From the IMG/VR virus record IMGVR_UViG_3300025141_008995, positions 1 to 39,567 of that record: DNA of 39,567 nt; one strand, 5' to 3'. Origin of the DNA: a virus. Numbering within the stretch: the first letter of the stretch is position 1; each line of letters opens with the position of its first letter. Shown here piece after piece: positions 1 through 39,051 of the stretch. The notes beneath the pieces were generated by a model. That model was given only the letters and a program-made list of their open reading frames with translations. It was not told the DNA's origin and did no database searches. A program made the position numbers and the translations under genes.

Positions 1-2
1 CT

Positions 3-218
3 ATTAACGGTGCTATTGTAATGAGCAACTCTGCGCCTACTTCCACCATTATACAATCCGCCGATGAGTTTAAGCCGAGCAAGGGTGAAAGTTTATGCCG
101 AGCGTTTACGCGGAAAGGAAAATGCGCCTCGTGTCGCGCGTGTTGGTCAAAATCGGTTAAGGTTATAAAATACGCGCTTCATGGAAATAAAGTTAAGGAT
201 AAATGGTTTACGGTCTAA
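3..218 (+). CDS. Partial phage protein, Cys-rich C-terminus (Gp88-like?)
   Basis: The reading frame is open to the left edge, so only the last 71 codons are seen. An internal Met lies at base 21, but the upstream codons are also open and the protein probably starts outside the window. The tail has a compact cysteine cluster (LCRAFTRKGKCASCRACW) followed by a basic stretch and a YALHGNK segment. From memory this arrangement resembles the C-terminus of phage Gp88-type proteins; that match is uncertain. The stop is followed after about 24 bases by a terminator-like hairpin. No function is assigned. Confidence 0.5.
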   Translation: MNGAIVMSNSAPTSTIIQSADEFKPSKGESLCRAFTRKGKCASCRACWSKSVKVIKYALHGNKVKDKWFTV

Positions 219-228
219 AAATTGAGGG

Positions 229-260
229 GGCGGGCCCGGACCTGCCATTTTGGCAGTTTA
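229..260 (+). repeat. 32-bp repeat, copy 1, with terminator-like hairpin
   Basis: This block is identical to 879-910. It holds a short GC palindrome (CGGGCCCG) and then CTGCCATTTTGGCAG (242-256), a 6-bp stem with a 3-base loop followed by a T-rich run. It sits just after the stop of the first gene and just before the next promoter, so it is read as a transcription terminator or 3'-end element. Confidence 0.7.
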
Positions 261-277
261 TTTTCTTGGTTTTATGC

Positions 278-306
278 TTGACAGTAGCATAAAATTATGG
301 TATAAT
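278..306 (+). promoter_or_regulatory. Consensus sigma70 promoter, leaderless start
   Basis: The -35 box is TTGACA (278-283), the spacer is 17 bases and the -10 box is TATAAT (301-306). The expected transcription start, 6-7 bases past the -10 box, falls on the ATG at 313. Confidence 0.85.
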
Positions 307-312
307 ATCTAT

Positions 313-507
313 ATGAAAATGACACGACAACACTTCCAAGCATTGGCTACCATGACTGCCGATATTATTGTTTCTATTAACGCAACCAAAGACCAGTGCA
401 TTAAAATCACTGATGAGGTCATTGCCGTTTGTAAAGAAGCAAACCCTAAGTTTGACGCTGACCGCTTCGAGACTTGGATTCAAGATATTTTGATAAATAA
501 TTCCTAG
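313..507 (+). CDS. Small hypothetical protein (64 aa)
   Basis: Function not recognised. The protein is mostly helical by composition, without signal peptide or membrane segment, and starts MKMTRQHFQALATMTADI. ATG 313 is chosen because a perfect sigma70 promoter ends at 306. A longer in-frame start at 250 would lie inside the upstream hairpin and promoter and is rejected. There is no Shine-Dalgarno sequence because the mRNA should begin at or next to the ATG. It is the first of several independent small plus-strand transcription units. Confidence 0.7.
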   Translation: MKMTRQHFQALATMTADIIVSINATKDQCIKITDEVIAVCKEANPKFDADRFETWIQDILINNS

Positions 508-514
508 AAAACAC

Positions 515-543
515 TTGACAATGCGCTTCCGCCATGTTATAAT
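515..543 (+). promoter_or_regulatory. Consensus sigma70 promoter with extended -10
   Basis: TTGACA (515-520), a 17-base spacer and TATAAT (538-543), preceded by TG one base upstream (TGTTATAAT). The ATG of the next gene is at 551, 7 bases after the -10 box, so the transcript should be leaderless or nearly so. Confidence 0.85.
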
Positions 544-550
544 AACTACA

Positions 551-769
551 ATGAAATACCTCATCAACCTTTACTCACAGTTTGTCGCTAAACGCTTCGA
601 GCATCTTTACAACAATTCTTATAACCACAGGCAAGACATTAAAGCCATGAAGGTTCTTAACCACTACCGTTCAGTTCGGCGTTTGCTACCTTTGGAAAAA
701 TGTGGAAAGCATTTTGGTAACCATGACGGTTCTAAGAAAAAAGCATATTGTGCTACGCAAGGGTATTAA
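551..769 (+). CDS. Small basic hypothetical protein (72 aa)
   Basis: Function not recognised. The product is rich in His, Lys and Arg and starts MKYLINLYSQFVAKRFEHLY. An in-frame ATG at 515-523 lies inside the -35 region of the promoter, so the start at 551, directly behind the -10 box, is used. A strong intrinsic terminator (834-877) ends this unit. The basic composition would suit nucleic-acid binding, but no motif supports that. Confidence 0.65.
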   Translation: MKYLINLYSQFVAKRFEHLYNNSYNHRQDIKAMKVLNHYRSVRRLLPLEKCGKHFGNHDGSKKKAYCATQGY

Positions 770-833
770 CCCTTAACAGGTTTAGGGCAGGTTGAAAGCC
801 GAGGCGATATATGATACCTATCCTAACCCTTCC

Positions 834-877
834 AAACCCCTGTTTAAACGCGTGCAATGCCCTTCAAACAGGGGTTT
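834..877 (+). terminator. Strong rho-independent terminator
   Basis: A perfect 12-bp stem (AAACCCCTGTTT at 834-845 with its complement at 866-877) encloses a 20-base loop, and the 3' arm ends in TTTT. It follows the stop of the gene at 769 and precedes the second 32-bp repeat. Confidence 0.85.
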
Positions 878-878
878 T

Positions 879-910
879 GGCGGGCCCGGACCTGCCATTT
901 TGGCAGTTTA
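879..910 (+). repeat. 32-bp repeat, copy 2, with terminator-like hairpin
   Basis: Identical to 229-260, including the GC palindrome and CTGCCATTTTGGCAG (892-906). It again lies between a finished transcription unit and the next promoter. Confidence 0.7.
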
Positions 911-950
911 TACTATTTTGCAATATCCTAAAATATTTATAGGTTTTTAC

Positions 951-978
951 TTGCATTATCCGTCCGCCATGTTATAAT
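951..978 (+). promoter_or_regulatory. Sigma70 promoter with extended -10, leaderless start
   Basis: A perfect extended -10 (TGTTATAAT, hexamer 973-978) with a weaker -35 (TTGCAT 951-956, 16-base spacer). The bases around the -10 (CCGCCATGTTATAAT) match the promoter at 515-543. The ATG follows at 985, six bases after the -10 box. Confidence 0.75.
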
Positions 979-984
979 ATAGTC

Positions 985-1167
985 ATGAATAAGCATAAAA
1001 CACCTTCTCGCAATGTTAGCATTGCTAAAATCCCAAATACAAATAGTTATTTGGTTTCTTACACCCCAACAGGCGGAAAAGCCACTACGGCTACATTTTC
1101 CAGTCGCAATCGTGCCAAGTCCTTCGTTAGGCGAAATATCACAAGCAAAGGTGCTTATGCAGGGTAG
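985..1167 (+). CDS. Small basic hypothetical protein (60 aa)
   Basis: Function not recognised. The protein is basic and Ser/Thr-rich, beginning MNKHKTPSRNVSIAKIPN and ending in GAYAG. It has no Cys and no membrane segment. The start is fixed by the promoter, whose -10 box ends six bases upstream; there is no Shine-Dalgarno. Next downstream is another consensus promoter at 1236 that leads into a non-coding stretch. Confidence 0.65.
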   Translation: MNKHKTPSRNVSIAKIPNTNSYLVSYTPTGGKATTATFSSRNRAKSFVRRNITSKGAYAG

Positions 1168-1235
1168 GTAGGTAGGGTATCGGCGTTTGTGAGAGTCCGC
1201 CCCAAGGAACGCTTGGAAAAAACTCACATTTTTAC

Positions 1236-1264
1236 TTGACTTTTGACTTTCTCAATGGTATAAT
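1236..1264 (+). promoter_or_regulatory. Sigma70 promoter for a non-coding transcript
   Basis: TTGACT (1236-1241), a 17-base spacer and TATAAT (1259-1264). No start codon lies near the predicted start site (about 1271). Instead the structured stretch 1271-1373 begins there. Confidence 0.8.
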
Positions 1265-1270
1265 AGTAAA

Positions 1271-1373
1271 CTAGCAAGTGGGGCAACGTCACCCATTGGG
1301 CTTCCTGGGTCGGAGATATCCGTAAAGCTTCCATGAACGTTGGAAATGCCAAAGAAATCCTCGCTTGCTTTTT
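1271..1373 (+). ncRNA. Candidate structured small RNA (about 103 nt)
   Basis: Starts where the 1236-1264 promoter should initiate. AGCAAG (1273-1278) can pair with CTTGCT (1364-1369), directly followed by a T run, so the whole RNA would be closed by a terminal stem with an intrinsic terminator. Inside are a CGGA-GATA-TCCG hairpin with a GNRA-like loop, a TTCCA/TGGAA hairpin with a 7-base loop, and GGG/CCC pairings near the 5' end. No sensible protein is encoded: the overlapping frame at 1333-1599 is made partly of TTTGACTTTTT repeats. It does not match any RNA family I know. Confidence 0.5.
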
Positions 1374-1508
1374 CACCCTGGGGCAGCGTGCCACATTGCT
1401 ATACAAAATAGTTTTGACTTTTTTAAGCGTAAAGTGTTTTTGCACCTTATACCTGGATAGGATCTACGATCGCTGGGGGATTAAGCTTGACTTTTTCCTG
1501 GCCCAAGG

Positions 1509-1523
1509 CTGCCATTTTGGCAG
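1509..1523 (+). terminator. CTGCCATTTTGGCAG hairpin, copy 3
   Basis: The same 15-base inverted repeat as in the 32-bp repeats, here without the GC-rich left part. It is followed by a GC palindrome (GCCGCGCGGC) and a short T run. It probably ends a transcript coming from the left. Confidence 0.55.
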
Positions 1524-1581
1524 TTTCGAGACTCCGCCGCGCGGCTCTTTTAAAACTATGCAAAGTATTTTGACTTTTTTC

Positions 1582-1610
1582 TTGACAATACTAGTTTGAT
1601 ATGTTATAAT
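1582..1610 (+). promoter_or_regulatory. Consensus sigma70 promoter with extended -10
   Basis: TTGACA (1582-1587), a 17-base spacer and TATAAT (1605-1610), preceded by TGT. It lies immediately after a TTTGACTTTTTT repeat. An ATG follows at 1614 and a GTG at 1617, right at the expected transcription start. Confidence 0.8.
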
Positions 1611-1613
1611 GAC

Positions 1614-1676
1614 ATGGTGATCAGCATCCAGACCCACGACTTGGATCGCCGCACGCCACTATTAGGATACAAATGA
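1614..1676 (+). CDS. Possible 20-codon micropeptide (or short RNA)
   Basis: ATG 1614 (or GTG 1617) opens a 20-codon frame, MVISIQTHDLDRRTPLLGYK, directly behind a perfect promoter and ending just before a TTTGACTTTTTT repeat. Its placement copies the leaderless genes nearby. Because it is so short, it could equally be a non-coding RNA of about 60-75 nt. No homologue is recognised. Confidence 0.3.
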   Translation: MVISIQTHDLDRRTPLLGYK

Positions 1677-1738
1677 GTTTTGACTTTTTTTCACCTAAAA
1701 TATATTTGAAATAATCAGTGATTTTTGACTTTTTTCAC

Positions 1739-1767
1739 TTGACATATAGGGGAGGCTACGGTATAAT
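1739..1767 (+). promoter_or_regulatory. Consensus sigma70 promoter, leaderless start
   Basis: TTGACA (1739-1744), a 17-base spacer and TATAAT (1762-1767). The ATG of the coiled-coil gene follows six bases later at 1774. Confidence 0.85.
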
Positions 1768-1773
1768 AATCGC

Positions 1774-2133
1774 ATGGGAAAACACAGAACACCAGAATCA
1801 TTACTCGCTGAGGCTCTTAAGAAGGTTGAAGCACTCAAATTACAAGTCGCTACGAAATCATTGGCTACTGACCCTCGTATGTTAGCAATAACAGCAGAGG
1901 AAAAGGCACTAAAGCAAGAATTGCTCAAGATACAGCGTTGGCTAAATCCCGTTACAGGATTGGCTAGTCGTATCACGAAATTGACTGCACAGATTCGTGA
2001 AGCGGAAGAAAATCTCCAAAACTCTAGTCAGCGTGATATGGAAATCCATATTCGTTTGTCGGAATTGGAAGAAAAGCGTAAGGTAACAGCATCAGAAATC
2101 TCAACAGAGGAAATGCTGATTACTAATGGCTAG
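1774..2133 (+). CDS. Coiled-coil hypothetical protein (119 aa)
   Basis: A charged, Lys/Glu/Leu-rich helical protein with strong heptad character over about residues 5-110, consistent with a long coiled coil. No signal peptide, Cys or catalytic motif is seen. The start follows a perfect sigma70 promoter by six bases, so the mRNA should be leaderless. It overlaps the next gene by 8 bases (ATGGCTAG), which suggests translational coupling. Function unknown. Confidence 0.75.
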   Translation: MGKHRTPESLLAEALKKVEALKLQVATKSLATDPRMLAITAEEKALKQELLKIQRWLNPVTGLASRITKLTAQIREAEENLQNSSQRDMEIHIRLSELEEKRKVTASEISTEEMLITNG

Positions 2134-2356
2134 GTTTAATTACTACGCAGGGGATAGGTTTATTGAAAATCTATCCCTTGGCTCTCGCTCTTGCCCTGAA
2201 TGCAAAGTTTTTTCGCTCTATGTTGAGTCTAGGAAAGAAAAGCGTATAGGGTGTAAGCATTGTCTAGGGGAATGGTCGCTTAAAGAAGATGGCTATAGTT
2301 TGCGCAGAGAGCGTTGGGATAATGTTAGACCTTGGCATCTTGACGAACACCCATAA
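2126..2356 (+). CDS. Zinc-ribbon hypothetical protein (76 aa)
   Basis: Two CxxC knuckles, SCPEC (about residues 23-26) and CKHC (about 43-46), separated by a short basic beta-like segment, form a typical zinc ribbon. The Trp-rich tail (WDNVRPWHLDEHP) is unusual. It overlaps the upstream coiled-coil gene and should be co-transcribed with it. A CTGCCATTTTGGCA hairpin starts at the stop codon. Nucleic-acid or protein binding is plausible; no specific role is known. Confidence 0.7.
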   Translation: MARFNYYAGDRFIENLSLGSRSCPECKVFSLYVESRKEKRIGCKHCLGEWSLKEDGYSLRRERWDNVRPWHLDEHP

Positions 2357-2604: not shown

Positions 2605-2680
2605 GGGGGTAAATGGGCAATTTTGAGTCATCTTTATGGTGCAGGAAATTGGGTAGGTTCAATTCCTACCACCTCCACCA
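2605..2680 (+). tRNA. tRNA-like element with intact T-arm and CCA (pseudo-tRNA?)
   Basis: The 3' half is convincing: T-stem GTAGG/CCTAC (2653-2657, 2665-2669), T-loop TTCAATT, acceptor strand CACCTCC, discriminator A and encoded CCA at 2678-2680. Counting back 76 nt reaches GGGGGTA (2605-2611), which pairs with the acceptor strand with one G-U and one A-C mismatch. A 4-bp D-like stem (2613-2616 with 2628-2631) is possible, but position 8 is A and no good anticodon stem forms. It is best called a degenerate tRNA, a tRNA-like structure or a captured tRNA 3' end. The anticodon cannot be assigned. Confidence 0.45.
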
Positions 2681-9358: not shown

Positions 9359-10585
9359 TTAGTTTGTTGCGTCAAAAATTATGGTGGAGAAATCCACCTT
9401 AAACCCACTAGCATCAAAATGCTCTGTGGTGTGATGGACACTAATGTCCTTAAATGCTTCAATCTCAGCAAGGAAAGTGGCAGGTAAAAGTTTTGGCTTA
9501 TTACGCTTCTGTCTTTGCTCAGAAAGTTTTACGGCTAGTTTTTTACCTATGGAAACTTGAACTTCTCCTTTGGTAACTTCCGCATCTTCAAACTCAATAC
9601 CTTCAGAATCCTCTTTGGCTCTTAAAACCATTTTATCATCTTCGGACATTTCGTTTAGTAAATCTTCTTCGGCATCGGTCATGGATTTTTCACTCATGTA
9701 TAAATCCATATAATCGACACCCCCCAATGTTGTCTCAAAATTAGTTTGCTTGTTCTTAAACAAATCTTCGATATGTTTACGAATAACATCGGCAAACTTT
9801 GAGAAAATTAAAGGGGTATACTCCTTTGGCGTTTGGTTCAGAATCAAAGACTTATCGCCAAATCTTTCTTCAATGAAAGAGTCGTTGATAAATCCTTTGT
9901 GCTGAAACAACAATCGAAAGGCTACATTGAACAAACTATTTTCATTCAATTCGCCACTCTCATACTTTGGAGCAAAATGCTCCTTAAAGATTCGTGTAGA
10001 CATCTTTTCTTCATACTTCGCCAAGTTTGGTGGGGCAAGAGAATCAATCCTAATATCTTCAACAGCGTTCAACAAAAATGCTAAATCATTACAAGCAGTT
10101 CGTAAAAACATAACATTTTCAGTTACCTCTGTATCGTTACTATACAAAGTCTTAAAGTCTAAAGTAGAATCAGAAAGAACAATATCATAAATACTTGTCC
10201 ATTCTTCATCTCCTGTTTCAACAAAAAGAGAATCCATACATTTACAAATCATACCAAAACAAGAAGCCCATGTTTGCCTTTCGGAATCGGAAAGTTTTAT
10301 ATGATGAAGTTCGTGAATCATACAACCAAGTGTATCATCTATTCGTCCATCTTCTAGTAAATGTGTAGGAATGTAGATAATGTTTTCATCTACGGAAGCC
10401 TTTGCCCCCTCATTTTGTTCTGTTGGAAACTCTACCTTTACGCCACTATCGGGAACAATAATATCTCGGTAATGAGTTATTAAAGTGCGAATATCGAAAA
10501 GCGTCTTGGCAGACAAAGAATCAATCTTCGCCCCACCAAGCCATCTTTCCATATATTCAGCGTCAATAGAAACAGGGTCAAACAT
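9359..10585 (-). CDS. CobT-like protein with HExxH motif (408 aa)
   Basis: MIHELHHIKLSD (HELHH at about residues 91-95) gives a metallopeptidase-type metal site. LLNAVEDIRIDSLAP further on recalls the ExxRI segment of CobT-family proteins. The C-terminal 130 residues are acidic and then basic, and the VWA domain that usually ends CobT is missing; it is encoded separately at 7726-8649. The start overlaps the ATPase stop (TAATG). It is likely the adaptor or protease-like partner of the AAA+ ATPase. Proteolytic activity is not shown. Confidence 0.7.
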   Translation of the reverse strand: MFDPVSIDAEYMERWLGGAKIDSLSAKTLFDIRTLITHYRDIIVPDSGVKVEFPTEQNEGAKASVDENIIYIPTHLLEDGRIDDTLGCMIHELHHIKLSDSERQTWASCFGMICKCMDSLFVETGDEEWTSIYDIVLSDSTLDFKTLYSNDTEVTENVMFLRTACNDLAFLLNAVEDIRIDSLAPPNLAKYEEKMSTRIFKEHFAPKYESGELNENSLFNVAFRLLFQHKGFINDSFIEERFGDKSLILNQTPKEYTPLIFSKFADVIRKHIEDLFKNKQTNFETTLGGVDYMDLYMSEKSMTDAEEDLLNEMSEDDKMVLRAKEDSEGIEFEDAEVTKGEVQVSIGKKLAVKLSEQRQKRNKPKLLPATFLAEIEAFKDISVHHTTEHFDASGFKVDFSTIIFDATN

Positions 10586-11409
10586 TAGTTTTCTTCTTTA
10601 TCTGTTGAGCCACCGTAAACGCCAAGTGAGTCTGCGTATTCACGAAGAATGTTCGCATCATTTAGAATGTTGCTACTATCTTGCTTGAACATGGATAAGA
10701 TTACATTATCTAAAATGTCTTTCAATGCGAAAGTTTTAGTTAATTCAGCAACCATCAAAACAGCCCTTGTAGAAATGCGTGTTGATAGTTTTGCTTGGTC
10801 AAACATTTTATGAGAGTAATCATATAGTTTAAGCAATGAATCACATTTTTCAGCAACTTCAGCACTTATAGTTTTCTTGATATAAGTTTTAAGGCTACGC
10901 CCTTTGATATACTCAAGATTAAAAATAGCAAAACGGTCTTGTAACGCTCGGTCAATACTTCTTGTTGAAGAATACTCTAAGCCAACATTAGCAGTTGCCA
11001 TAAACCTAACGCCTTTGGCAACATTTACTATTCTATCTTCATCTTTCTCATCAACACGAATGTTTTGACGGAAATCTAAGATTGGAAAAATAATATTATA
11101 TGCGTCATCAGAACCTCTTGATAATTCATCTAAGATTACAAGTGTATTGGGTTTCTGAATCGCTTTTAGGAAATCTGCTTCTTGGAACTTGGTGCTACCA
11201 TTTTCCAATGTGAAATATCCAATGAGTGATGACCTAGCATCTTGTGTCGAACCGCAGTTGATAACGACAGGTTCAAGATTCAACTCTTTAGCAATCTCAA
11301 CCGCTAAAGTAGTTTTACCTGTTCCTGTTGCCCCTGTGATAAGAACATTTTGTTTTTGATTTACCATTTCTGTTAGAATGGATTTTTTAGTTTTATTTAT
11401 TACAAACAT
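10585..11409 (-). CDS. CobS/MoxR-like AAA+ ATPase (274 aa)
   Basis: Walker A GATGTGKT (residues 26-33), Walker B VILDELSRG (91-99), sensor segment FMATANVG and an arginine-finger segment RALQDRF fit the MoxR/CbbQ/CobS branch of AAA+. Cobalt-chelatase-like CobS genes are known from T4-like phages. It is the first gene after the sigma70 promoter at 11451-11479, with a leader of about 30 bases and no clear Shine-Dalgarno. Together with the HExxH and VWA genes it forms an ATPase-driven remodelling module. Confidence 0.85.
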   Translation of the reverse strand: MFVINKTKKSILTEMVNQKQNVLITGATGTGKTTLAVEIAKELNLEPVVINCGSTQDARSSLIGYFTLENGSTKFQEADFLKAIQKPNTLVILDELSRGSDDAYNIIFPILDFRQNIRVDEKDEDRIVNVAKGVRFMATANVGLEYSSTRSIDRALQDRFAIFNLEYIKGRSLKTYIKKTISAEVAEKCDSLLKLYDYSHKMFDQAKLSTRISTRAVLMVAELTKTFALKDILDNVILSMFKQDSSNILNDANILREYADSLGVYGGSTDKEEN

Positions 11410-14378: not shown

Positions 14379-15398
14379 TTATACCTCCTTGGTATTATAG
14401 TTAGAGCCTTCAGCATCTTTTGTGAGAAAATTAATATATTTTTTAACTCCCTCACCAATGCTTAAAAACGGCTCTTTGTAGCCAGCACCCCGCAACTTCG
14501 TCACCGAGGCTTGCGTATCGTACTGGTATTGCTCTTGAATGTCTTCGGGCATCTCGATATATTTAACCCCGAAGTAATTTTCGTACCCCATATTGTGGAA
14601 TACGTGAGATGCGACACAGTTAAAAGATTCGGCTTGTCCTGTACCTACATTAAATAGTCCATTCACATCTTCATTTTCTAACAGCCAATAGATTACTTTG
14701 CAACAATCATCCACGTGAACAAAATCTCTGCGTTGTTCTCCATGGTCAAACTCGTCCTCGTAAGATTTAAATAGGTGTATGTGGGGGTTCTCTTCTTCCC
14801 CAAAGGTCAGGATCTGATCATGCATTTTCAACATAATACTTCTCATGTGTCCTTTATGCTCTTCATGAGGACCGTACACATTAAAGAACTTTAAACCTAC
14901 CAGTTGAGGAGGTTTGCCTCCCCCATTATCAATAGATTCAAATATTCTATGATCGACCATAGCCTTTGTTCTTGCATATGGGTTTAAAGGGTTAAGTTTA
15001 GCTAAATGCTCTAAAGCATCATCATCAAAATGTCCATGTTCTCCACCTCCATACGTAGCTGCAGAGGAAGCGTACATAAACCTAATTTGTAGCCTCTTAC
15101 AAGCCTCATAAAGATCCATGGTGAAATCTACATTGTTGGTAAGTAATTCGTCTGACGCTGGCGCTGTGGTGTCAGAAATGGCTCCTAGGTGAATTACTGC
15201 TGCAATTCTACCTTCCCACCTCTCTAAAAACTTAATAAGGTCATTAGGATGGATATCAGCTGGGAACCCACGAGAGTTGTCAACGTAATCACACGTGTAC
15301 ACTGGGCTTCCATGCAATCCTGCATTCGCAGCTTGGTCATCTATAAGGCTTATAAGGTTTTTCCCTATAAAGCCACTGCTTCCTGTTACTATTATCAT
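14379..15398 (-). CDS. hldD: ADP-glyceromanno-heptose 6-epimerase
   Basis: Catalyses the last step of ADP-heptose synthesis, ADP-D-glycero- to ADP-L-glycero-D-manno-heptose. Short-chain dehydrogenase fold: nucleotide loop GSSGFIG (residues 6-12), YASSAATYGG, the active-site region NPYARTKAM, then FFNVYGPHEEHKGHM, FNVGTGQAESFN and LRGAGYKEPF, all hallmarks of HldD (the E. coli enzyme has YASSAATYGG, FNVYGPREGHKGSM, FNLGTGRAESF). 339 aa compared with about 310 in bacteria. It starts six bases after an RCCTTTWATA motif. The kinase and nucleotidyltransferase steps are encoded at 38278-39415. Confidence 0.9.
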   Translation of the reverse strand: MIIVTGSSGFIGKNLISLIDDQAANAGLHGSPVYTCDYVDNSRGFPADIHPNDLIKFLERWEGRIAAVIHLGAISDTTAPASDELLTNNVDFTMDLYEACKRLQIRFMYASSAATYGGGEHGHFDDDALEHLAKLNPLNPYARTKAMVDHRIFESIDNGGGKPPQLVGLKFFNVYGPHEEHKGHMRSIMLKMHDQILTFGEEENPHIHLFKSYEDEFDHGEQRRDFVHVDDCCKVIYWLLENEDVNGLFNVGTGQAESFNCVASHVFHNMGYENYFGVKYIEMPEDIQEQYQYDTQASVTKLRGAGYKEPFLSIGEGVKKYINFLTKDAEGSNYNTKEV

Positions 15399-17366: not shown

Positions 17367-18101
17367 TTATATAGAGGATTTCATGGAACAATCTACAGGA
17401 TAATCGTAAGGTAAATTTATATCTTTATAAGGTACGGATTTAACCTCGGGGAATTCCTCACGAGCTAAGTCTATAACCGCTTTCCGCTTAGTTCCTATGT
17501 TTAGAATACCTTTTTTATTTTTACAAATAGCCTCTACAATCTTCTTAGCGATGATATCCACCCAATCCTTAGACGTGTAAACATCCCTAAACGCTTGAGT
17601 TAATTGTTTTTTATCCTCTCCCCAAGTCTCTCGTTTAACAAAAGAAGTTCTAATAATTAGATCGGTTTTAGAAAAATGTGATTCCCCTGCCAATTTGGTA
17701 AAACCGTAAAACGTAGTAGGTCCTGTTTTACTTCGGGGGGTGTAATTTCCTTCTATGCCAGGATAAACATAATCAGTAGAAATATAAACAACTTTAACCT
17801 TTGATACTTCATCAAACGCGTAAGCAATGTTTGCGGCTCCAAAAATGTTCGACTCGATTACCTTTCTTTGAAACTTGGGGTTTTCAGCTTTGGGGACATC
17901 GGTCCACGCAGCTGCATGTATTACTAAATCGTACTTAGTATTTCTAGCGAACTCTGCAACTTCTACAACATCTTCTACTCTAAGCTCTGCACGTGTCGGT
18001 GCGTCTACCTCAGCCCCTTCATCTATAAGAAGAGGTATGAGTTCAGAGCCTAACGCACCACTACCCCCGGTTACTAAAATCTTTCGTTCTACTAATCTCA
18101 T
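17367..18101 (-). CDS. rmlD: dTDP-4-dehydrorhamnose reductase
   Basis: Reduces dTDP-4-keto-L-rhamnose to dTDP-L-rhamnose. SDR fold with GGSGALGSEL near the N-terminus, then VIHAAAWTDVPKAE (compare VVNAAAYTxVDxAE), YISTDYVYPG, and the catalytic Y-x3-K in FYGFTKLAGE. The length is 244 aa, below the usual 290-300, with a reduced substrate domain. The start overlaps the rmlB 3' end by about 40 bases. The family ending is intact but short. Confidence 0.85.
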   Translation of the reverse strand: MRLVERKILVTGGSGALGSELIPLLIDEGAEVDAPTRAELRVEDVVEVAEFARNTKYDLVIHAAAWTDVPKAENPKFQRKVIESNIFGAANIAYAFDEVSKVKVVYISTDYVYPGIEGNYTPRSKTGPTTFYGFTKLAGESHFSKTDLIIRTSFVKRETWGEDKKQLTQAFRDVYTSKDWVDIIAKKIVEAICKNKKGILNIGTKRKAVIDLAREEFPEVKSVPYKDINLPYDYPVDCSMKSSI

Positions 18102-19044
18102 CTTTTAAAAATCCTTCTAAGGTTTGATATACTTTTTCCCCTAGGAATTCTTCTGTTTTCTTATTGTTAAGTCTATAAACTCTGTCATGTCCTAATCTAT
18201 CTTCGACGTGGACAGTTTTTAACTCCATCCCTAGTTGTTTTGCAATGTACTTGACGATTTCTATATTTTTATAATGAAATCCTGATCCGATATTGTATTC
18301 TTCATTTTCTGCAGACGAAAACATTAATTCCAAAATAGTTTGGCAATTATCATCCACGTGCATCCACTCACGAGACTGAAGACCATCACCGTAAATAGGA
18401 ATTTCCAAATCTCCTTTAATGGCTTTAAACACTTTTGGAATGAATTTTTCGGGGTTTTGGTTTGGTCCGAAATTATTGCAGGTTCTCGTGATGAGGTAGG
18501 GCACGTCGAATGTCCTTGCAGCTGCTTGAACCAAGAGCTCTGCAGAAGCTTTCGTTGCTGAATAATACGAAGACGGGCGAAGCTTAAAGGATTCATCAGA
18601 GGATTGTCGTCCTTGTAGGTCGTACATATCCCCATAGACTTCATCCGTAGATATTTGGATAAATTTCTTGAGTTTTTTGGCATGTTTAAAGTACTCTAAT
18701 AGGTTAAGAACGCCTTCTACATTAGTCTTAACGAAAGGGCGTCCGTTGGTAATGGAATTGTCTACATGAGTCTCCGCAGCAAAATTAACAACGTACTTAG
18801 CTTTTAAAAGTGCATCCTGCTCAAGGTCTGGTAGTTTGTTAAAGTCGATACAAATATCCTCTTTCATAAAACGATATCGCTTTATGTCTTGACGCATTCT
18901 TTCGGAGAGTCGTGTATGGTCAGCGGCGTAGGTTTCTTTATCGATGTTGATAATCTTTAACTTAGTATTTTCATACACAGCGTGTATAAATCTAGACCCA
19001 ATAAAACCTAAACCCCCAGTAATTACAATCGTATCATTTTCCAC
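18061..19044 (-). CDS. rmlB: dTDP-glucose 4,6-dehydratase
   Basis: Converts dTDP-glucose to dTDP-4-keto-6-deoxyglucose. Nucleotide loop GGLGFIGSRF, FAAETHVDNSI, ISTDEVYGDM (catalytic Thr-Asp-Glu), SYYSATKASAELL (Y-x3-K) and RTCNNFGPNQNPEKFIP are diagnostic. 327 aa is normal for the family. The start overlaps the rmlA stop, giving an rmlA-rmlB-rmlD cluster transcribed together. Confidence 0.92.
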   Translation of the reverse strand: MENDTIVITGGLGFIGSRFIHAVYENTKLKIINIDKETYAADHTRLSERMRQDIKRYRFMKEDICIDFNKLPDLEQDALLKAKYVVNFAAETHVDNSITNGRPFVKTNVEGVLNLLEYFKHAKKLKKFIQISTDEVYGDMYDLQGRQSSDESFKLRPSSYYSATKASAELLVQAAARTFDVPYLITRTCNNFGPNQNPEKFIPKVFKAIKGDLEIPIYGDGLQSREWMHVDDNCQTILELMFSSAENEEYNIGSGFHYKNIEIVKYIAKQLGMELKTVHVEDRLGHDRVYRLNNKKTEEFLGEKVYQTLEGFLKDEISRTKDFSNRG

Positions 19045-25266: not shown

Positions 25267-26235
25267 TTAATTTTTAGATTTTTGGTACCAATCAACATAT
25301 CTTTTTATTCCTTCCTCGTAAGGAACTTCAGGATTGTAGTTATGTCTTTCTTTTATTTTAGAAATAGAGGACTGAGTTTTTGTAGGCTCACCGGCTTGTA
25401 TTGTCATCTCCTCGCAGTTGGGGATTTTATGCATATGCACGCCTATTTCAGCAACCATTTCATGCAGTTCTACAGGCTCTCCCCTCCCTATATTAAAAAT
25501 TTCAAAACCTTGAACATCAGACATGCAGCAAAAAATACCTTCTATAATATCAGAAATATAAGTATAGTCTCTAAACGTCTCTCCTTGACTACCGTACAAT
25601 TGTATGGGGGTCCCTTCATCAATAGCTTTTGTAAACTTTGCTATTGCCATGTCAGGGCGTTGTCTAGGACCGTATACTGTAAAGAACCGTAACCCTAACA
25701 TAGGTATTTTAGTTAGCTTGTGGTAAGTGTAACAGACCTCTTCAAGAGCTTTTTTGCTTCCTGCATAAGGAGATAAAGGTTTAGATACGTTCATACTCTC
25801 CTCCCATGGAAACACTTTAACACCTCCATAGACGCTCGAGGATGAAGCAAAAATAAGCTTAGCCCTCCACCTGTACGGAGAATTTTCAAGAGCGCGTAAC
25901 AAGCTTAAACTTTTAATTAAGTTATTTTGGTAATACTTTTCAGGGTCGTCCAAGGAAGGTCGAACTCCTGCATGTGCAGCTAAGTGTATAACATAATCAA
26001 ACCCTGTAGTCATTAGAGTTTTGGTAACTTCCTCTCCTGAAAAATCACCTTCAATCAACTTGTACATAGGGTTATCGAGGTTGGCAGACACATTCCTACG
26101 TTTAAGCTTACTAGGGTAGTCTGGATGGTACTGCCCAAACGTATCACACCCCCAAACTTCATAACCTTCAGACAGCAATCTGTCTGCTAGATTAGAACCT
26201 ATAAACCCGGCTATCCCTGTTATGAATACTCTCAT
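25267..26235 (-). CDS. NAD-dependent nucleotide-sugar epimerase (GalE/CapI-like)
   Basis: SDR fold: TGIAGFIGSNLADRL near the N-terminus, HLAAHAGVRPSLDDP, ASSSSVYGGVKVFPW, the catalytic SPYAGSKKALEEV (Y-x3-K), LRFFTVYGPRQRPDMA and FNIGRGEPVEL. The AGVR and YGPRQRPDMA pieces are typical of UDP-glucuronate 4-epimerases (CapI). 322 aa is normal. Substrate cannot be fixed from sequence alone. It overlaps the GT2 gene by 4 bases and heads the glycan island. Confidence 0.85.
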   Translation of the reverse strand: MRVFITGIAGFIGSNLADRLLSEGYEVWGCDTFGQYHPDYPSKLKRRNVSANLDNPMYKLIEGDFSGEEVTKTLMTTGFDYVIHLAAHAGVRPSLDDPEKYYQNNLIKSLSLLRALENSPYRWRAKLIFASSSSVYGGVKVFPWEESMNVSKPLSPYAGSKKALEEVCYTYHKLTKIPMLGLRFFTVYGPRQRPDMAIAKFTKAIDEGTPIQLYGSQGETFRDYTYISDIIEGIFCCMSDVQGFEIFNIGRGEPVELHEMVAEIGVHMHKIPNCEEMTIQAGEPTKTQSSISKIKERHNYNPEVPYEEGIKRYVDWYQKSKN

Positions 26236-37925: not shown

Positions 37926-38285
37926 TTAATCTCCTTGGGTCACCCTATAGCTATCCCCTTCGGAATGGTATGTAGAAAATTCAAACAGTTCAGTATCTTC
38001 CACAGCTTCCATTTGGTGTCTCAGCAAAGGTGGGACATCAAAAACATCCCCCGCACTAAGAAGAACTTCCACCGCATTATCTAGGTCATTTTCTTCTCCA
38101 TGTCTTAAAATTAATTTTCCTGACTGTACATAAAACGTCTCAGTTTTTCTCCGATGGTAGTGGTAAGAGCATTTTTTTCCTTTATTAAAAAATAAAAGCT
38201 TGCCGCAGTATTTCTCGGAATTAGCAATCCATAGCTCATACCCCCAACCTTTTGGGTGGTATTCTGATTGTTTTACATTACTCAT
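37926..38285 (-). CDS. Cupin, mannose-6-phosphate isomerase-like (119 aa)
   Basis: Single cupin domain: GKKCSYHYHRRKTETFYVQ gives the HxH(x4)E metal site, SGKLILRHG the core glycine strand, and GDVFDVPPLLRHQMEA the second motif with His. The plan matches type-II phosphomannose isomerase C-terminal or sugar-isomerase cupins. It sits just below the split HldE genes, suggesting a part in sugar-phosphate supply. Substrate unknown. Confidence 0.7.
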   Translation of the reverse strand: MSNVKQSEYHPKGWGYELWIANSEKYCGKLLFFNKGKKCSYHYHRRKTETFYVQSGKLILRHGEENDLDNAVEVLLSAGDVFDVPPLLRHQMEAVEDTELFEFSTYHSEGDSYRVTQGD

Positions 38286-39051
38286 AAATTTTATCCGGGT
38301 TTATAGTATGACACCCAAGTTTGGTTACGGAAATAGCGGCACACTTGTTTGCAAACCTAATAGAAGCCCCTACGTCGTCTGTAGTTAAAAAACAAGAAAC
38401 GAAAGCTGATAAAAAGGTATCACCTGCGCCAGTTGGGTCAAACATATCTACTTTCTCTGCAGGGAAAGTAGTATTTTTATACTTGGTTCCTTTAGATCCT
38501 AACGTAACTATGTACTTATTACTTTTGTCTTCGTGCACCAACGCCTCGTACTCAAGCTCATTTAGTTTTATATAAGCCCCTTTAACTCCATTCAAATAAC
38601 TCTTTTTAGTGTCTATGAACAACTTTGCATCGTAAAGGTACGCCTTGTCAGAAATCTCCGCTAAAACATGTAAGGGTAAAAAGCCTTTATCGTAATCAGA
38701 AATAACTATTGCGTCAAAATTCTTAAAACAAGGTAAAGTTTCAACCTTTAGTTTGCTAACTGGAGTGTCTTCTCGATCTAATCTAATGAGTTGTTGGCTA
38801 GACCGACTATCAATGATTCTTGTTTTTTTGATAGGCTCATGATTGTGAATGAAAGTAACCTCATTCCCTAGCGCAGTTAGATTACTTTGTACGTTTCCGC
38901 CCATTCCTTCCTTCTCCTCCCACTTGTTTATTTTTACTACAGGGACAGGAGCCTCAGGGCTAATTCTATCAACTGTACCAAACAAATACTTGTCTATGCA
39001 CAGCTCACCTAGCAGAAGAATCTTCGATGGTTTTAGTAGAGGAATATCCAT
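38278..39051 (-). CDS. hldA: Heptose-7-phosphate kinase (HldE N-terminal domain-like)
   Basis: A PfkB/ribokinase-fold kinase. The N-terminus ILLLGELCIDKYLFGTVDRI followed by SPEAPVPVV matches HldE/RfaE domain I, and DPTGAGDTFLSAF near the C-terminus is the catalytic anion-hole motif. It should make D-glycero-beta-D-manno-heptose 1,7-bisphosphate. 257 aa compared with about 315 in HldE domain I, so peripheral parts are trimmed. It overlaps the next gene by 47 bases. Confidence 0.85.
   Translation of the reverse strand: MDIPLLKPSKILLLGELCIDKYLFGTVDRISPEAPVPVVKINKWEEKEGMGGNVQSNLTALGNEVTFIHNHEPIKKTRIIDSRSSQQLIRLDREDTPVSKLKVETLPCFKNFDAIVISDYDKGFLPLHVLAEISDKAYLYDAKLFIDTKKSYLNGVKGAYIKLNELEYEALVHEDKSNKYIVTLGSKGTKYKNTTFPAEKVDMFDPTGAGDTFLSAFVSCFLTTDDVGASIRFANKCAAISVTKLGCHTINPDKIYE

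What the first reader, a model, noticed from the sequence alone, without database searches (positions are those of the whole stretch)
278..1774. Battery of near-perfect sigma70 promoters giving leaderless mRNAs
Four small genes (ATG at 313, 551, 985 and 1774) lie only 6-7 bases after a TATAAT box, three of them with an exact TTGACA and 17-base spacer. Transcription should therefore start on or beside the A of the start codon, with no room for a Shine-Dalgarno. Genes inside the minus-strand operons often have strong AGGAGG sites, so this is a choice and not a general habit of the genome. It could ensure immediate early translation by 70S ribosomes.
Basis: partly seen in the sequence, partly recalled or inferred. 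Interest (0 to 1): 0.75.

Follow-up and report, generated by a model that had tools for sequence, protein, structure and literature searches.

The report
Phage early genes without mRNA leaders
In this uncultured phage and its relatives, very strong promoters sit so close to the start codons of small early genes that the messages should begin at, or within about three bases of, the first codon; this arrangement is kept across at least eight related genomes, so it is almost certainly real, although leaderless messages themselves are already known in biology.

Summary
ATGs at 313, 551, 985 and 1774 lie 6, 7, 6 and 6 bases after TATAAT; three promoters are perfect 12/12. It is far beyond chance. 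In eight non-redundant loci of one phage lineage (the window plus seven relatives), 102 strong promoters have an ORF-opening ATG at offset 6 in 28 cases, 7 in 15, 9 in 7, and 5 or 8 in none (about 1.2 expected per offset; P 2e-30, 1e-12, 2e-4). Position +7, the expected start of transcription, is A in 47 of 50, implying leaders of 0, 1 or 3 bases. All four ORFs have homologs at the same spacing (6-7, once 9), with purifying selection measurable for two families. GP88, whose 3' end opens the window, is leaderless only in this lineage. The 1774 gene is leaderless here and in one relative but has a roughly 40-50-base leader with an SD or weak SD-like site in five others, so the state is switchable. 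"Operon genes often have strong SDs" is not supported, and a second promoter-like motif also abuts start codons. No transcript is mapped; the host is unknown.

The parts
1..218 (+). 3' part of a GP88-family gene (PF17338), cut by the contig end; leaderless in relatives
   Evidence: the reading aligns with the C-terminus of the GP88 proteins of L153/L154; Pfam on relatives; upstream regions compared
242..256 (+). hairpin CTGCCATTTTGGCAG followed by T-rich DNA, probable terminator between cassettes; repeated at 892, 1509 and about 2357
278..306 (+). promoter TTGACA-17-TATAAT, TG before the -10
313..507 (+). 64-aa ORF, predicted leaderless; homologs in 6 other loci of the lineage
   Evidence: dN/dS about 0.15-0.3
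515..543 (+). promoter TTGACA-17-TATAAT
551..769 (+). 72-aa ORF, predicted leader of 0-1 base; homologs in 6 other loci
892..906 (+). hairpin CTGCCATTTTGGCAG, probable terminator
951..978 (+). promoter with extended -10 (TGTTATAAT) and weak -35 (TTGCAT, 16-base spacer)
985..1167 (+). 60-aa ORF, predicted leaderless; homologs in L155 and L237 at the same spacing
1236..1264 (+). promoter TTGACT-17-TATAAT that appears to drive a non-coding RNA
1271..1373 (+). conserved structured RNA ending in a T run; homologs in L153, L154 and L262
   Evidence: no Rfam family
1582..1610 (+). promoter TTGACA-17-TATAAT
1614..1676 (+). 20-codon ORF (ATG at offset 3, GTG at offset 6); no homolog found, uncertain
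1739..1767 (+). promoter TTGACA-17-TATAAT
1774..2133 (+). 119-aa ORF, leaderless here and in L155; the ortholog has a long leader with an SD or weak SD-like site in five relatives
2126..2356 (+). 76-aa ORF overlapping the end of the 1774 gene, probably co-transcribed; no clear SD

Best explanation
This is the early region of a large contractile-tailed phage lineage known only from metagenomes. It is built of small one-gene cassettes: host sigma-70-type consensus promoter (TTGACA-N17-TATAAT, usually with TG before the -10), then 6, 7 or 9 bases, then the start codon, often closed by a short hairpin terminator. Host RNA polymerase should start at the A seven bases after the -10 box, giving mRNAs with 0, 1 or 3 bases before AUG, which ribosomes start by recognising the 5'-terminal or near-terminal AUG instead of an SD. 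Shown here: spacing, its conservation, absence of SD, purifying selection on two of the four families, and switching between SD-led and leaderless orthologs. Inferred: the start site itself, early timing, the initiating ribosome form, and the benefit (compact self-contained cassettes that can be gained and lost singly).
For: Four perfect promoters, all in the first 1.8 kb. Relatives carry similar batteries, mostly in the same place and strand relative to the AAA-ATPase operon. 102 promoters in 8 loci: offsets 6 (28), 7 (15), 9 (7), none at 5 or 8, expected 1.17. A at +7 in 47/50 and C/T at +6 in 44/50, whereas promoters without an adjacent ATG have A at +7 in only 12/52; at offset 6 the A is given by the ATG itself, but 19 of the 22 at offsets 7 and 9 also have it. 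62 ORFs, 52 of them in 13 families with at least two members. dN 0.13-0.36 against dS 0.74-2.5 for the closest homologs of the 313 and 551 ORFs. Start Met aligned in homologs. GP88 leaderless in this lineage but in SD/operon context elsewhere. 1774 orthologs: ATG 48-58 bases after the -10 with an SD or SD-like site in 5 relatives, 6 bases in W and L155. Controls: promoters scoring 11/12 or more with an ATG at 5-9: lineage 39/83, T4 0/5, SPO1 0/3, HTVC008M 0/7, P-SSM2 1/5. Literature: a -10 box about 6-7 bp before the ORF marks leaderless genes in Deinococcus (PMC12340547), and TA-like signals about 10-12 bp upstream mark them in bacteria generally (PMC3160421).
Against: No transcript has been mapped and the host is unknown. 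The promoters are consensus matches. About half of the 102 promoters have no ATG at offsets 5-9 (they precede RNAs, SD-led genes, GTG starts, or nothing recognised), so leaderless is common, not universal. dS is saturated or unmeasured for the 985 and 1774 pairs with L155, so selection is not measured there. No terminator was found between genes 313 and 551, so 551 may also be read from a longer mRNA. The control phages have few promoters of this score.
Confidence: 0.87

Rival explanations
1. Leaderless architecture is a by-product of genome compaction and cassette shuffling: selection acts on short self-sufficient promoter-gene units, with no special translational purpose.
For: One promoter per small gene, terminators between several units, variable gene content and order between relatives; second promoter-like motif also abutting ATGs.
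Against: Offsets are strictly 6, 7 or 9 with A at +7, and 52 of 62 ORFs fall into families that keep it over large divergence; compaction alone would also allow 10-20-base leaders, which are nearly absent. It is compatible with the main explanation and concerns only the reason.
Confidence: 0.5
2. One reading: leaderless mRNAs guarantee early translation by 70S ribosomes when normal initiation is limiting or altered by the phage.
For: Leaderless mRNAs can be initiated by 70S ribosomes (general knowledge); these are the strongest promoters of the window; codon 2 is AAA in 34 of 62, favourable for leaderless starts by general knowledge.
Against: A second promoter-like class also abuts start codons of operon genes; the 1774 ortholog has a long leader in five relatives; predicted 5' ends are not less folded than shuffles by any clear margin (mean z +0.45).
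Confidence: 0.25
3. The promoters drive longer or non-coding transcripts and the nearby ATGs are coincidence or mis-called starts.
For: Some promoters of the same kind do precede apparent non-coding RNAs (window 1236-1264).
Against: 28+15+7 ATGs against about 1.2 expected per offset, homologs aligned from Met1, purifying selection where it could be measured.
Confidence: 0.03

Closest known systems
Leaderless (TA-led, -10-adjacent) bacterial genes, e.g. Deinococcus radiodurans (PMC12340547) and the survey PMC3160421
   Same: -10 box about 6-7 bp before the ORF, no SD, transcription expected to start at the start codon
   Different: Here in a phage, with near-perfect -35 and -10 and often TG, grouped as a battery of one-gene units
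Mycobacteriophage cluster O (Corndog) promoters PL1, PR2 and PL2 (PMC4351075)
   Same: SigA-like promoters whose predicted +1 is the first base of the start codon
   Different: Three promoters in phages of an actinobacterium, a group in which leaderless mRNAs are common; here up to about 10 per locus, small one-gene units, no relationship found to those phages
Phage lambda cI mRNA from PRM (classic leaderless mRNA, general knowledge)
   Same: mRNA begins with AUG
   Different: A single maintenance gene of a temperate phage, not an early battery
SPO1 host-takeover module (terminal redundancy)
   Same: Many small early genes in one region (annotation; strong host-type promoters by general knowledge)
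   Different: Promoter-like sites in the 1-13 kb stretch have no ATG at 5-9 bases (0 of 15 at score 9 or more)

Membership tests
Leaderless genes of the -10-adjacent (TA-led) kind | -10 box about 6-7 bp (0-3 base leader) before the start codon | tested here: met
   gaps 6, 7, 6, 6 in the window; 50 of 102 promoters in the lineage
Leaderless genes of the -10-adjacent (TA-led) kind | no Shine-Dalgarno before the start | tested here: met
   no SD match for 313, 551, 985, 1774
Leaderless genes of the -10-adjacent (TA-led) kind | transcription start mapped at the start codon | not testable with these tools
   indirect support only: A at +7 in 47/50
Leaderless genes of the -10-adjacent (TA-led) kind | the start codon is the one used | tested here: inconclusive
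   homologs align from Met1, but the 313 family has a second in-frame ATG two codons on in all three aligned members; no peptide data
SPO1-like host-takeover module | battery of small genes each with its own strong host-sigma promoter | tested here: met
SPO1-like host-takeover module | SD-led translation of those genes | tested here: not met
   leadered exceptions in relatives
[quoted passage not shown]
   compared with PMC4351075
Corndog-type leaderless phage promoters | related phage genes / actinobacterial host | tested here: inconclusive
   replication genes closest to SPO1-like phages, GP88 in Acinetobacter, Pelagibacter and Roseobacter phages, the 38278-39051 protein in cyanophages; host unknown

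The most novel reading that the evidence does not exclude
A phage lineage that runs most of its transcription units as leaderless mRNAs, from host sigma-70 early promoters and from a second, lineage-variable promoter class that also abuts start codons, and that also encodes a tag-less mini-tmRNA in or next to this region, i.e. a coordinated remodelling of translation initiation and ribosome rescue during infection.
Probability: 0.15. Interest if true: 0.85.

Novelty: new variant of a known kind. Interest (0 to 1): 0.55.

Why it matters
Leaderless mRNAs in phages are known mostly as single cases. Here whole batteries are kept over several divergent phage genomes, with orthologs that differ in having or lacking a long leader. 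That makes a clean natural comparison for asking when leaderless initiation pays, and a set of ready-made strong promoters for testing it in laboratory strains. It also warns annotators: gene callers that want an SD may move these starts.

Tried and rejected
Looking for relatives by the 1774 protein in viral contigs gave none and DNA search in named phages gave none; the AAA-ATPase, GP88 and 313 proteins worked. No tRNA by ARAGORN and no Rfam hit at curated cut-offs in the window. Host: not established; no psbA in nine records. Low folding of the 5' ends as a signature was tested and not supported. TTTGACTTTTT, 14 copies all on the + strand, was considered as stoperators or as -35 remnants; not resolved. 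Bacterial genome hits of the mini-tmRNA pattern look, by eye, mostly like ends of ordinary tmRNAs.

Full report
What was claimed. Four small genes lie 6-7 bases after a TATAAT box, three with a perfect -35, so their mRNAs should be leaderless, by choice.

Check. The sequence is as described. Promoters at 278-306, 515-543, 1582-1610 and 1739-1767 match TTGACA-17-TATAAT perfectly; they are the only such matches in 39.6 kb and the reversed pattern has none. The ATGs at 313, 551, 985 and 1774 follow the -10 box by 6, 7, 6 and 6 bases. The promoter of 985 has a weak -35 (TTGCAT) but TGT before TATAAT. None of the four starts has an SD.

Relatives. The record is a virus fragment. The AAA-ATPase gene at 10585-11409 found seven relatives at 57-68% protein identity; a GP88-family gene, whose 3' end is window 1-218, found more. 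Relatives carry batteries of near-perfect promoters, mostly in the same place and orientation. In two records of the lineage I read a tail sheath, baseplate wedge, portal, terminase, DNA polymerase and ribonucleotide reductase, so these are contractile-tailed phages; the window has a DnaB-like helicase, UvsX-like recombinase and SSB.

Statistics. In eight non-redundant loci I listed 102 promoters by score alone. ATGs opening an ORF of at least 20 codons lie at offset 6 in 28, 7 in 15, 9 in 7; none at 4, 5, 8, 10 or 11; expectation 1.17 per offset from local background (P 2e-30, 1e-12, 2e-4). A smaller peak at offset 0 (8) comes partly from ATGs in frame with the offset-6 start. -10-like boxes without a -35 show 6 of 291 at offset 6. 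In the 50 cases the base at +7 is A in 47 and the base before it a pyrimidine in 44, the usual initiator (general knowledge); so offsets 6, 7 and 9 mean leaders of 0, 1 and 3 bases. Known phages scanned the same way do not show this: T4 0/5, SPO1 0/3, HTVC008M 0/7, P-SSM2 1/5 at score 11 or more, against 39/83 in the lineage; these controls are small.

Genes are real. 62 such ORFs were collected from ten loci (two of them close relatives of others in the set); 52 fall into 13 families with at least two members. The window ORFs align with homologs from Met1. For the closest homologs of 313 and 551, dN is 0.13-0.36 and dS 0.74-2.5; for the pairs of 985 and 1774 with L155 dS is saturated, so there only the conserved protein sequence speaks.

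The state switches. GP88 is leaderless in this lineage and lies in operons or behind SD-like sites in most of the other phages listed (named phages). The 1774 protein is leaderless in the window and in L155, but in L239, L237, L262, L152 and L153 the ATG lies 48-58 bases after the -10 box, behind an SD (AAGGAG, AGGAG) or, in L237, only a weak SD-like stretch. For this gene the leader is thus either almost nil or about 40-50 bases.

In the minus-strand operons strong SDs are a minority: about 7 of 61 assigned starts have a 6-base or longer match and 4-base matches are near the random level. The motif CCTTTWATA occurs 9 times in the window against 1.9 expected; 6 of its 7 minus-strand copies lie 2-6 bases before a start codon (P about 1e-12 under a simple model). 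Relatives have CTAAATAA or CTATAATA in similar places. This may be a second promoter class with short leaders; it is a lead, not a demonstration.

Mechanism. Most likely the host polymerase starts at or next to the A of the start codon and ribosomes recognise the 5'-terminal AUG. That translation uses 70S ribosomes, and that it serves early timing, are inferences from general knowledge; 5' ends are not unusually unfolded (mean z +0.45). Compact one-gene cassettes are an equally good reason.

Known or new. Leaderless genes with the -10 box 6-7 bp before the ORF are well described in Deinococcus (PMC12340547) and widespread in bacteria (PMC3160421). Cluster O mycobacteriophages have three predicted cases (PMC4351075). 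A conserved battery of such one-gene units in a phage lineage was not found in the papers searched, which cover open-access text only. I file it as a new variant of a known kind.

Side result. The window has at 2605-2680 a tRNA-like element (tmRNA model 25.4 bits, below the cut-off of 47). L153/L154 and L238 have versions of 78 and 81 bases scoring 67 bits, above the cut-off, with no tag domain. A pattern scan of viral contigs gave further ones. In 14 sequences that I picked by eye, G3-U70, the alanine identity pair, is invariant while pairs 4:69, 5:68 and 6:67 vary with pairing kept. The window copy lacks the TTCGAC and GGACG blocks and has one acceptor mismatch.

Noticed in passing
window 2605-2680 (+); L153 12225-12148, L154 14540-14463, L238 12712-12632; viral loci L264-L268, L271, L273, L274, L276, L277, L280, L281: Short (70-84 base) tmRNA-like RNAs: acceptor and T arm of tmRNA with invariant G3-U70 and covarying pairs, but no tag-coding domain. 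The window copy is degenerate. I found no paper describing tag-less mini-tmRNAs in phages in two searches of the held library.
   Followed up: partly
window 1271-1373 (+); L154 about 14760-14640, L153, L262 about 1046: Conserved structured RNA behind its own 11/12 promoter, with no Rfam match.
   Followed up: partly
window minus strand: 36976, 35337, 25265, 22091, 15413, 13597: CCTTTWATA 2-6 bases before start codons of operon genes; relatives have CTAAATAA or CTATAATA instead. Possible second promoter class, also with short leaders.
   Followed up: partly
window, 14 copies between 1413 and 13284, + strand only: Repeat TTTGACTTTTT, always in one orientation; also in relatives, sometimes as the -35 of a promoter. 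Operator, promoter remnant or something else; not resolved.
   Followed up: no
window 242, 892, 1509 and about 2357; L007 minus strand 20414, 20017, 19681, 18882: Near-identical palindrome GCCATTTTGGC upstream of promoters, probably the terminator of the previous cassette, shared with one relative.
   Followed up: no
window 14379-15398, 17367-18101, 18061-19044, 25267-26235: Four ORFs matching the nucleotide-sugar epimerase family phrog_540 (one of them over part of its length), with a glycosyltransferase and a heptose-kinase/adenylyltransferase-like gene elsewhere in the window.
   Followed up: no
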